Positions 35,991 to 46,651 of a DNA stretch of 64,000 nt are shown in pieces. The stretch covers positions 1,828,001-1,892,000 of the forward strand of contig JALUTQ010000003.1 in assembly GCA_032718865.1 (NCBI GenBank), written 5' to 3'. The notes below the pieces were generated by a model. The model saw only the letters and a list, made by a program, of their open reading frames with translations, did not search any database and had not been told where the DNA came from. The translations under genes were made by a program, and so were the position numbers. How positions within the stretch are numbered: position 1 is the stretch's first letter; every line of letters begins with the position of its first letter. The stretch comes from Tilletia caries. Lineage: Eukaryota > Basidiomycota > Exobasidiomycetes > Tilletiales > Tilletiaceae.

Positions 35991-37973
35991 GCACCGGGCG
36001 GTGGAGAAGAGGAGGAGGGCTTCGTCGTCGGTCGCGGGGGCGCCAACATCGACGAGGCCGCCAGCTCCGACTCCTTTCTTTCCCCCAGCGATCCGAGGCG
36101 CTACTGACGAGCTCCCATCGCACGTTGCCATCTGCGAGGAGCGGTTCATCACGGCGGCCAATCGGATCTTTCGGTGGGCCCCTTCGCCGGGCCCAGCTTC
36201 TTCTCTCTCAACTACTTCCGGTTTCGATTTCGACCCTTCGGGCCTCATGCGGGGCGCGGTTAACGAGGTGCTGGAGTTCTCCCTCGAGGAGTCCACATGC
36301 ACCTCGTACAGTACCGGCATCATCAAGTTCTGTTCCTTCTGTGACTCGGCCGGCATCCCTATTCAGGATCGGTGTCCACCGTCGAGTGGACTTCTCCTCG
36401 CGTTCGTTTCTTCCTTCGTCGCAAAGGTACGGGCCGACACGGCCAAGAAGTACCTTGGGGCCGTGGCTACTTGGCATCGGCTGTGGGGGCATGACTGGGT
36501 AATCTTTCCCCAGGTCACCTATGCCCTCCGTGGACTCAAGCACTTCCAACCTCCGGCCAACGACTTACGGCCTCCGATCCTTGCGGCGCATCTACATGCT
36601 GTCAAAGCACATCTCAATATCGATTCCGATCCATTACACGCCGCCGTGTGGGCGTGTTCCCTTTTCTCTTGGTGGGCGGTGTGTCGACTCGGAGAGACAA
36701 CGTCTCCTTCAACACCGGCCTTCGCTCCTTCACACAACGCGACGCGGGCTTCTATTCAGGCCAGGGCTCGGCACGACTATGGGATTTTACGACTATTACG
36801 ACTATAGCCTCATACGACTATGAGCGACTATAGTCATAGCCGCTGATAGTCGCACTTACGACTATGACTATGACTATGCTCCAGAAAATGTAAGACAATA
36901 GTCGCCATAGTCGTTAAAAATCTGGTCTAAAATTGATTTTGCGACTATAGTCGGACAATAGCTGTACGTCAAGGCTATAGTCGCAGCAAACAATTCGGCT
37001 ATAGTCCGACTATAGTATGTTATGGTCGGACTATAGCTTGGAGTTGCGACTATAGCCGCAGGCCCGACCGCCACCGCTATAGTCAGACTATGACATCTAT
37101 TGCCCATGAAACACTATAGCCAGTCATAGTGCGAATATTATCGTTGGATAGTCGAACCATAGCCTGACTATGTCCGAATTTATAAAATCGAAACCGACCT
37201 ACACTATAACTATTTATAGTCTGAAATTTGACGTGCAACTATAGTGCGAAAATTATTGTCCCGAAGTCCGACTATAGTGGCGCACTGGCGTTCCATTTTT
37301 GGCAATAGTCTCACTATAGTGCAAGATTTGGCTGCGCAAAATCCTGCGACTATAGTCGACTATGACATCATAGTAAGACTTACGACTATGACTATTTCGG
37401 ATTTTCAAAAAACGCCTACGACTACGACTATGACTATGCCAAAAAACGTGCGACTATAGTCGGAGCCGAGCCCTGATTCAGGCGCATCGACAAGTCCTAA
37501 ACGACAGGGAGATCGTGCGGGTCAATCTTCCATGGACGAAGACGACCAAGGAGAAGGGCCAGCAGAAGCACATCGTGAAGGTCGGTGGGGCCCTCTGCCC
37601 TGTCGAGGCCTTCGATAATCATCTCCGCCTCAACCCTGTCCCGGTCAACGAACTCTCGACGACTGCTCTCTTCGCCTTTCGTGCTTCTTCAATGCCCGGC
37701 TCCACACTTGTGCTCCCGCTTTAGAAAACCAAGTTCCTCGCCACGTTCAACGCGGCTCTCGTCCGGTCCGGCCAGGAGGCCTTCCAGGGACATTCCTTCC
37801 GTATCGGCGGTGCCACGATGTACTGGCATACAGGAACGGACATCAAGTCGATCAAGCTGATTGGCGGATGGACGGGGAACTCGGTCCTCAAATACCTTCG
37901 GGAATACGCGCGCGGTCTTCTTCCGGCGCACGAGCGCGCAGCGGCGGCCATTGCTGAGGCCGCCCCGTCGTAA
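35956..37973 (+). pseudogene. DIRS element tyrosine recombinase, interrupted by element B1
   Basis: The frame from 35956 (MTYGGLNQVL) reads an SAM-like N-terminal domain (LEESTCTSYSTGIIKFCSFC, VRADTAKKYLGAVATWHRLW) and the first catalytic Arg region (SWWAVCRLGET). Element B1 then splits it at ATTCAGGC. Removing B1 and one 8-bp duplication restores the frame exactly (IQAHRQVLNDREIVRVNLPW). A TAG at 37722-37724 then interrupts before KTKFLATFNAAL and the catalytic box GHSFRIGGATMYWHTGTDIK, LIGGWTGNSVLKYLREY (H-x-x-R and the nucleophile Tyr region). Two further copies of the C-terminal part lie inverted at 42065-42823 and 44597-45357. Confidence 0.85.
36762..37475 (+). mobile_element. Element B1: 714-bp hAT-type MITE, parental insertion (ATTCAGGC duplicated)
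   Basis: Ends are CAGGGCTCGGC and GCCGAGCCCTG, flanked by an 8-bp direct repeat ATTCAGGC (36754-36761, 37476-37483). CAGGG ends with 8-bp duplications are typical of hAT transposons. The interior is packed with CGACTATAGTCG-like palindromic units in both orientations, likely transposase-binding subterminal repeats. There is no coding capacity for a transposase. It sits inside the recombinase gene. Confidence 0.9.
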
Positions 37974-38232
37974 TCTCGTCGTTCTCCTTTCTTTTCTTTC
38001 TCTGGTCTGCGTTTGCTTTCCTCCCCCTGGCATGTCGTTCGACTGCCCTAATGTCGATATCGTTTGATACTCTCCCAATTTCTCTGCAATCGAGCTGAGC
38101 TCACATGGCGGTCGCCTGTGATGTATCTAAAGCTCTGGATATGCGTGAAAGTAAGACCAATCCCTACGTGGGTAATGGTTTCGGCGGTGTCCCTTCAGAG
38201 TCCTTCCACCGGCGTCCCTCCTTTGTCGTGAC

Positions 38233-45357: not shown

Positions 45358-46074
45358 CAGGGCTCGGCTCCGACTATAGTCGCACGTTTTTTGGCATAGT
45401 CATAGTCGTAGTCGTAGGCGTTTTTTTGAAAAATCCGAAATAGTCATAGTCGTAAGTCTTACTATGATGTCATAGTCGACTATAGTCGCAGGATTTTTGC
45501 GCAGCCAAATCTTGCACTATAGTGAGACTATAGCCAAAATTGGAACGCCAGTGCGCCACTATAGTCGGACTTCGGGACAATAATTTTCGCACTATAGTTG
45601 CACGTCAAATTTCAGACTATAAATAGTTATAGTGTAGGTCGGTTTCGATTTTATAAATTCGGACATAGTCAGGCTATGGTTCGACTATCCAACGATAATA
45701 TTCGCACTATGACTGGCTATAGTGTTTCATGGGCAATAGATGTCATAGTCTGACTATAGCGGTGGCGGTCGGGCCTGCGGCTATAGTCGCAACTCCAAGC
45801 TATAGTCCGACCATAACATACTATAGTCGGACTATAGCCGAATTGTTTGCTGCGACTATAGCCTTGACGTACAGCTATTGTCCGACTATAGTCGCAAAAT
45901 CAATTTTAGACCAGATTTTTAACGACTATGGCGACTATTGTCTTACATTTTCTGGAGCATAGTCATAGTCATAGTCGTAAGTGCGACTATCAGCGGCTAT
46001 GACTATAGTCGCTCATAGTCGTATGAGGCTATAGTCGTAATAGTCGTAAAATCCCATAGTCGTGCCGAGCCCTG
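45358..46074 (-). mobile_element. Element B5 without element C; chimeric flanks
   Basis: The left flank is GCCTGAAT and the right flank CAACTGAA. It lacks element C and shares sequence variants with B1 (for example CATGGGCAATAGATGTCATA) rather than with B2-B4. Its right flank matches the reverse complement of B2's right flank, so B2 and B5 look like the reciprocal products of one inversion. Confidence 0.88.
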
Positions 46075-46651
46075 CAACTGAACACCGCCTAAGGGCGCGT
46101 GTATGATTGACGAGCTTGATGAGATGAATGATGCGGATCGGTGAGTGGCTTGATTCTCGCCTACAGCACACGAAGAAGCTGGGATCGCTGATGGGGTTTG
46201 CTCTTGTACAGAACTTCGATTCACGAGGCCATGGAGCAACAGAGTATCTCGATTTCCAAGGCCGGCATCGTCACCGCCCTTCACGCACGATGCTCCATCA
46301 TAGCCGCAGCCAATCTGATCCGTGGAGTGAGTGTCTCTACCGATCTGAAGAAGCATATACGTCACGACTGACTTCTCTTTGACCCATCACCAACAGCGCT
46401 ACAACCCCACAATTCCCTTCAGCCAAAACGTCGAGCTGAACGAGCCGATCCTGTCCCGCTTCGACGTGCTCTGCGTCGTCAATGACACCGTTGACCCGGT
46501 CAAGGACAATATGCTGGCCCGCTCCGTGGCTGGCTCGCACCTGCCCTCACATCCGCGCTTGAACGAGGCTGTCGATGAGGCCCGGGTGGCGACTGCCTTG
46601 GATGCTGACGTGAGTACTCTGCAAGGGGGATAGGATACGGGGGGAAATGAT

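What the first reader, a model, noticed from the sequence alone, without database searches (positions are those of the whole stretch)
36754..46082. Mismatched target duplications around five hAT-type MITEs record ectopic recombination
B1 has ATTCAGGC on both sides and B3 has GTCACGAC on both sides: simple insertions. B4 has GCCTGAAT/GTCACGAC, B2 has GTCGTGAC/TTCAGTTG and B5 has GCCTGAAT/CAACTGAA. Each odd pair is made of halves of three parental sites (B1, B3 and a lost insertion in element A with CAACTGAA). The simplest reading is unequal crossing-over between B copies, amplifying the recombinase 3' segment, followed by an inversion with breakpoints in B2 and B5. It shows MITEs acting as recombination substrates, readable from 8-bp tags.
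Basis: partly seen in the sequence, partly recalled or inferred. Interest (0 to 1): 0.85.

Follow-up and report, generated by a model that had tools for sequence, protein, structure and literature searches.

The report
Mobile-DNA ends reshuffling a fungal locus
Five copies of a small mobile DNA element in a smut-like fungal genome carry mismatched 8-base footprints that record a duplication and an inversion, and the details fit more simply with two elements being cut and moved together than with recombination alone; both kinds of event are already known from maize and fruit flies.

Summary
In detail: five B copies, two simple (B1 ATTCAGGC, B3 GTCACGAC) and three whose odd flanks are halves of three 8-bp sites. 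Uninterrupted sites elsewhere in the genome confirm all three (12 of 12 other A copies fetched for B1 and for B3, 8 of 8 E copies for the third). Correction: the third site is not in A but in the right end of E, the MITE in which A is nested, itself inside an MCM2-like gene copy.
Unequal crossing-over explains B4. For the inversion, B2 and B5 are not detectably chimeric: B5 is of B1's type, B2 of B4's, and these halves were found at no other copy scored. One sister-chromatid transposition at CAACTGAA, using ends of two different B copies, gives the observed order: 2 steps against 4 for recombination alone from the likeliest start, 3 against 5 and 5 against 5 from two others. Recombination with a lost third copy, and misassembly, remain possible. 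Genome-wide 16 of 71 readable complete B copies have mismatched flanks, 7 of them with a partner on the same contig. Known kinds of events, probably in a Tilletia-like fungus.

The parts
36762..37475 (+). B1: 714-bp hAT-type MITE, ends CAGGGCTCGGC, flanks ATTCAGGC on both sides; left-half type alpha, right-half type beta
36754..36761 (+). ATTCAGGC, left target duplication of B1 (repeated 37476-37483); site uninterrupted in 12 of 12 other A copies fetched, letter for letter in 2
37476..38232 (+). R1: 3' part of element A (end of a recombinase-like reading frame with an in-frame stop), between B1 and B2
38233..40003 (+). B2: beta-type B with nested C; flanks GTCGTGAC / TTCAGTTG; equal to B4 except for homopolymer lengths
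38380..39428 (+). C: nested element (ends CAGTGGTCGGCATG, 8-bp duplication GTCGCCAT) in B2; also in B3 (40870-41917) and B4 (43399-44449)
40004..40141 (-). Right part of E (second MITE, nested host of A), now inverted; its right end holds the third 8-bp site (TTCAGTTG on +); the border with A is uncertain by about 4 bp
40138..40292 (-). 3' end of element A, inverted; ends with GTCACGAC beside B3
40293..42064 (-). B3: beta-type B with C, flanks GTCACGAC on both sides (simple insertion)
42065..42823 (-). R2, identical to R1 after homopolymer collapse
42824..44596 (-). B4: beta-type B with C, flanks GCCTGAAT / GTCACGAC: read as product of unequal crossing-over
44597..45357 (-). R3, identical to R1 after homopolymer collapse
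45358..46074 (-). B5: alpha/beta type like B1, flanks GCCTGAAT / CAACTGAA
46075..46087 (+). CAACTGAA, the other copy of the third site, followed by CACCG, the end of E
31618..31918 (+). Left part of E, inside an MCM2-like gene copy (start read from the end GGCGGTGTTCAG; alignments of other E copies begin between 31612 and 31829)
31919..36761 (+). 5' and middle part of element A (inserted in E)
30997..31625 (+). MCM2-like gene copy, part before E (85% to a second copy on C9; the alignment overlaps the start of E by a few bases)
46090..46615 (+). MCM2-like gene copy, part after E (77% to the same C9 copy, colinear with the first part)

Best explanation
An element A with a tyrosine-recombinase-like reading frame sat in the MITE E inside an MCM2-like gene copy. 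Two hAT-type MITEs of family B inserted in A: P (now B1, site ATTCAGGC) and Q (now B3, site GTCGTGAC); C inserted in Q. The right half of P became identical to that of Q (gene conversion, inferred). Step 1: unequal homologous crossing-over between P and Q on sister or homologous chromatids gave P-R-H-R-Q, H carrying one flank of each parent. Step 2 (most likely, inferred): hAT transposase joined the right end of H on one sister chromatid with the left end of P on the other and inserted the pair at CAACTGAA in the right end of E. This gives P-R-H followed by the inverted P-R-H-R-Q-A3'-E segment: exactly B1-R-B2-(E)-B3-R-B4-R-B5, with CAACTGAA/TTCAGTTG as the target duplication of that one event. 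The present flanks, the empty sites and the kinship of copies are shown; the two mechanisms are inferred.
For: Flanks and order. Uninterrupted sites: 12 of 12, 12 of 12 and 8 of 8. E and the MCM2-like copy are colinear only if the inversion is undone. B5 is of B1's type and B2 of B4's: columns 1-356 hold 15 alpha/beta difference sites and no shared derived site, columns 357-714 hold 19 sites where all five depart from the family consensus and no alpha/beta difference beyond private ones (Fisher p 5e-10, which replaces the miscounted 20 used). The alpha left half is identical only in B1 and B5 among the 40 candidates scored of 142; the right half is 98-100% only in the five copies here among 40 scored of 145, next best 95%. 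R copies, and B2/B3/B4 with C, are identical after homopolymer collapse; B1 and B5 then differ by one base. Token search: 2 steps with crossing-over plus sister-chromatid transposition against 4 by recombination plus a new insertion; 3 against 5 if P began as a pure alpha copy. B-type ends flank two 9-11 kb stretches with exact 8-bp duplications and a Dimer_Tnp_hAT match inside. The same flank pattern on inverted copies recurs at C28 896185/898164 and, with one truncated copy, at C33 733059/734089. Precedent: passages of PMC3744419 say that sister-chromatid transposition can give flanking inverted duplications, with 8-bp duplications at Ac/Ds junctions.
Against: Step counting weighs a rare reaction the same as a common one, and if P and Q both began beta-type and an independent alpha copy inserted, the two models tie at 5 steps. 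Recombination is at work too (B4 flanks; the C1 pair has 4 of its 6 differences in the last 64 bp of B). B1 carries two private differences from B5, one of which vanishes on homopolymer collapse. The reciprocal deletion product cannot be seen. Near-identical inverted blocks, and a palindromic end of contig C19, are also what misassembly would give.
Confidence: 0.45

Rival explanations
1. [not shown]
For: All odd flanks are halves of three sites. Crossing-over is needed anyway for B4. Paths of 4 or 5 steps exist, including one with an independent alpha Z. Inversion by ectopic recombination between transposons with exchanged duplications is reported in Drosophila (PMC2775673 passages). The C1 pair in this genome looks recombinational.
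Against: B2 and B5 are not detectably chimeric, which the recombination model predicts (criterion stated in PMC2775673 passages), although exchanges within the identical right half would leave no mark. Needs two more events than the transposition model from two of three starts tested, and as many from the third.
Confidence: 0.3
2. Assembly artefact: the true locus has three simple insertions (P, Q and Z) or two haplotypes, and the assembler walked through the shared B sequence several times. The observed order is a permitted walk through the repeat graph of such a locus (reasoned here, not computed).
For: Copies of the same type differ only in homopolymer lengths, apart from one base between B1 and B5. 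Contig C19 ends in what looks like an inverted copy of the preceding 29 kb, tested at the near 6.7 kb, one kb in the middle and the last 1.5 kb, without TTAGGG repeats in that last stretch, so palindromes in this assembly deserve suspicion.
Against: 38.1 Mb in 40 contigs, the longest seen 2.69 Mb, suggests long reads, which would span a 2.5-kb repeat. Homopolymer lengths differ between copies. C-bearing and C-free copies are easily told apart.
Confidence: 0.2

Closest known systems
Sister-chromatid transposition of maize Ac/Ds (hAT)
   Same: 8-bp duplications at new junctions; inverted duplication beginning at a transposon end; a copy that keeps one original flank and has a foreign one on the other side (PMC3744419 and PMC8225341, passages seen)
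   Different: Here MITEs in a fungal genome; two different elements of a tandem array supplied the ends; inferred from one assembly, not observed as an event
Ectopic recombination between Galileo copies, Drosophila buzzatii inversions
   Same: Opposite orientation, exchanged target duplications, single-copy sites in chromosomes without the insertion (PMC2775673, passages seen)
   Different: There the breakpoint copies are chimeric; here they are not detectably so
Hybrid element insertion
   Same: Ends of two copies on sister chromatids or homologues used together; outcome strikingly similar to recombination except that the copies are not chimeric (PMC2775673 passages; association with P elements recalled)
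   Different: There the two copies are identical; here they are of two types because two different array members would have taken part
impala rearrangements in Fusarium (Hua-Van et al. 2002)
   Same: Rearrangement by non-standard transposition in a fungus (named in a passage of PMC8225341; the paper itself not seen)
   Different: Not a hAT element (recalled)

Membership tests
hAT MITE (family B) | 8-bp target site duplication | tested here: met
   Of 71 complete copies readable outside the locus 50 exact, 5 with one mismatch, 16 with two or more
hAT MITE (family B) | short terminal inverted repeats | tested here: met
   CAGGGCTCGGC at both ends; 111 left and 111 right ends with up to 2 mismatches genome-wide, 0 for the reversed-pattern control
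hAT MITE (family B) | mobilised by a hAT transposase with the same ends | tested here: inconclusive
   Two 9-11 kb stretches with B ends, exact duplications (AGCAGAGG, ATAGTGAC) and a Dimer_Tnp_hAT match; read only in part, and mobilisation itself not testable
Ectopic homologous recombination | odd flanks are halves of existing insertion sites | tested here: met
Ectopic homologous recombination | copies at the inversion breakpoints are chimeric | tested here: inconclusive
   B5 is B1-type and B2 is B4-type at the diagnostic sites, so no chimerism is seen, but exchanges within the identical right half would be invisible if the lost copy was P-like
Sister-chromatid transposition | one left and one right end in direct orientation | tested here: met
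   right end of B2 and left end of B5 carry the new junctions
Sister-chromatid transposition | same 8-bp target at both new junctions, single in the empty site | tested here: met
   TTCAGTTG/CAACTGAA; 8 of 8 E copies run through the site once, 7 letter for letter
Sister-chromatid transposition | copies at the junctions unaltered, sisters of remaining copies | tested here: met
   B5 and B1, B2 and B4; two private differences in B1
Sister-chromatid transposition | reciprocal deletion chromatid | not testable with these tools
   only one assembly held

The most novel reading that the evidence does not exclude
In this smut-like genome hAT MITEs are repeated agents of sister-chromatid (alternative) transposition: besides this locus, inverted partner pairs at C28 and C33, a composite with outer duplications at C4, and a 29-kb terminal inverted duplication that starts exactly at a B terminus on C19, which would fit a breakage-fusion-bridge event set off by B ends.
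Probability: 0.3. Interest if true: 0.65.

Novelty: new member of a known kind. Interest (0 to 1): 0.42.

Why it matters
The locus shows how TE footprints, empty sites and copy kinship together can weigh transposase-driven rearrangement against homologous recombination in a genome sequence, without genetics. If transposition is right, short non-autonomous hAT elements reshape a fungal genome by a reaction best known from maize, and the copies with mismatched footprints (16 of 71 readable) give a ready list of loci to test.

Full report
What is there. The window lies in a 38.1-Mb, 40-contig genome (C3:1828001-1892000). The ribosomal protein L3 frame in the window has its highest identity among named hits listed to Tilletia horrida (93% over 75% of the frame; best 120 of 7970 listed), so the genome is probably a Tilletia-like smut. 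B2, B3 and B4 contain the nested element C with its own duplication GTCGCCAT.

Nesting and empty sites. Twelve other copies of A were fetched. All twelve run without interruption through the B1 site and the B3 site and have one R each. GTCGTGAC is there letter for letter in 7 of 12 and as GTCGCGAC in 5; ATTCAGGC letter for letter in 2 of 12, the others diverged. The third site is in E: in 8 of 8 other E copies examined the left part (to 31918 here) is joined to the right part (40137 downwards here) without A, and all eight run through the site once, seven letter for letter. E sits in an MCM2-like gene copy: 30997-31625 and 46090-46615 are colinear with one copy on C9 (85% and 77%); the name MCM2 rests on recall of the protein, not on a family match. 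The ends GGCGGTGTTCAG and the TAA on both sides of E look like a Harbinger-type MITE (recalled; letters read). So the old order is known on independent grounds, and the stretch from B2's right end to B5 is inverted in the assembly.

Kinship of the copies. Against 36 other B copies, columns 1-356 show two types, alpha (B1, B5) and beta (B2, B3, B4), with 12 beta-derived and 3 alpha-derived sites and no shared derived site. Columns 374-614 show 19 sites where all five depart from the family consensus; beyond column 356 the only differences are two sites private to B1 (columns 535, 543), one at 645 in B5 and homopolymer indels. Some of the 19 are common in other copies; 9 were seen in none of 61 others. 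Thus P's right half was replaced by Q's type, or the reverse. The alpha half is 100% only in B1 and B5 (next 99%), the right half 98-100% only in the five copies here (next 95%), among 40 candidates scored each time. R copies, and B2/B3/B4 with C, are identical once homopolymer lengths are ignored; B1 and B5 then differ by one base. The duplications are therefore very young, or drawn from the same reads.

Rest of the genome. In the loci fetched, 71 complete B copies outside the locus could be read: 50 exact duplications, 5 with one mismatch, 16 with two or more. Seven of the 16 have a partner with the same 8-mer on the same contig; about 0.2 exact matches are expected by chance among the ends compared. 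C28: two inverted copies with fully exchanged flanks. C1: inverted copies with at least 2.28 kb of 99.7% identical arm on one side. C19: inverted arms that end exactly at B's left end; the near 6.7 kb is 99.0% identical, and samples in the middle and at the contig end match too. C4: two direct copies with TCAGGGAG outside both and unrelated flanks inside, as a composite transposon would have. C33: a pair of 93.6% identity with one truncated copy. C1 carries a sign of recombination within B, so both processes probably act. Two 9-11 kb stretches with B ends, exact duplications and a hAT dimerisation-domain match are candidate transposase sources (2 of 74 such domain matches in the genome).

Comparison. 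Passages of PMC3744419 and PMC8225341 describe sister-chromatid transposition with inverted duplications in maize; PMC2775673 passages describe the recombination case and state that the copies are chimeric under recombination but identical under hybrid element insertion. PMC4168063 was seen in passages. Searches of the held library listed no paper whose title or abstract start reports hAT sister-chromatid transposition in a fungus; most listed papers were not opened, and two listed reviews on fungal TEs use the term alternative transposition in text that was not read.

Verdict. Observation confirmed; interpretation partly supported, with the third site relocated and the inversion step more simply read as alternative transposition. 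The kind of event is known; the example is clean if the assembly is right.

Noticed in passing
L080, L130, L131, L132, L133 (C19:1142400-1201313, sampled): The last 29 kb of contig C19 look like an inverted copy of the preceding 29 kb, starting exactly at a B left end; no TTAGGG or CCCTAA in the last 1.5 kb. Sampled, not read in full. Breakage-fusion or assembly fold-back.
   Followed up: partly
L091, L092 (C4:2088003-2093387): Two direct B copies with the same 8-mer TCAGGGAG outside and unrelated flanks inside: looks like a composite transposition of 5.4 kb.
   Followed up: partly
L136-L139, L141, L142 (C27:527761-538849, C33:746384-755417): 9-11 kb stretches with B-type ends, exact 8-bp duplications and a hAT dimerisation-domain match; their sampled inner regions are 98.6% identical. 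Candidate transposase sources for B.
   Followed up: partly
window 30997-46615: An MCM2-like gene copy is interrupted by E and its nested elements; a second copy lies on C9 (L078), 77-85% identical.
   Followed up: partly
window 50212-53126: Copia-type retroelement reading frames (RVT_2; rve, gag_pre-integrs) on the minus strand, in two overlapping frames.
   Followed up: no
window 61513-62769: Reading frame with a MULE transposase domain; a B-like sequence CAGGGCTCGGCTCG at 61678 lies inside it.
   Followed up: no
window 38380-39428 and genome copies: C has two other full-length 99% copies (C33, C40), one of 83% (C39), and many matches to only its first 576 or its last 390-473 bases.
   Followed up: no
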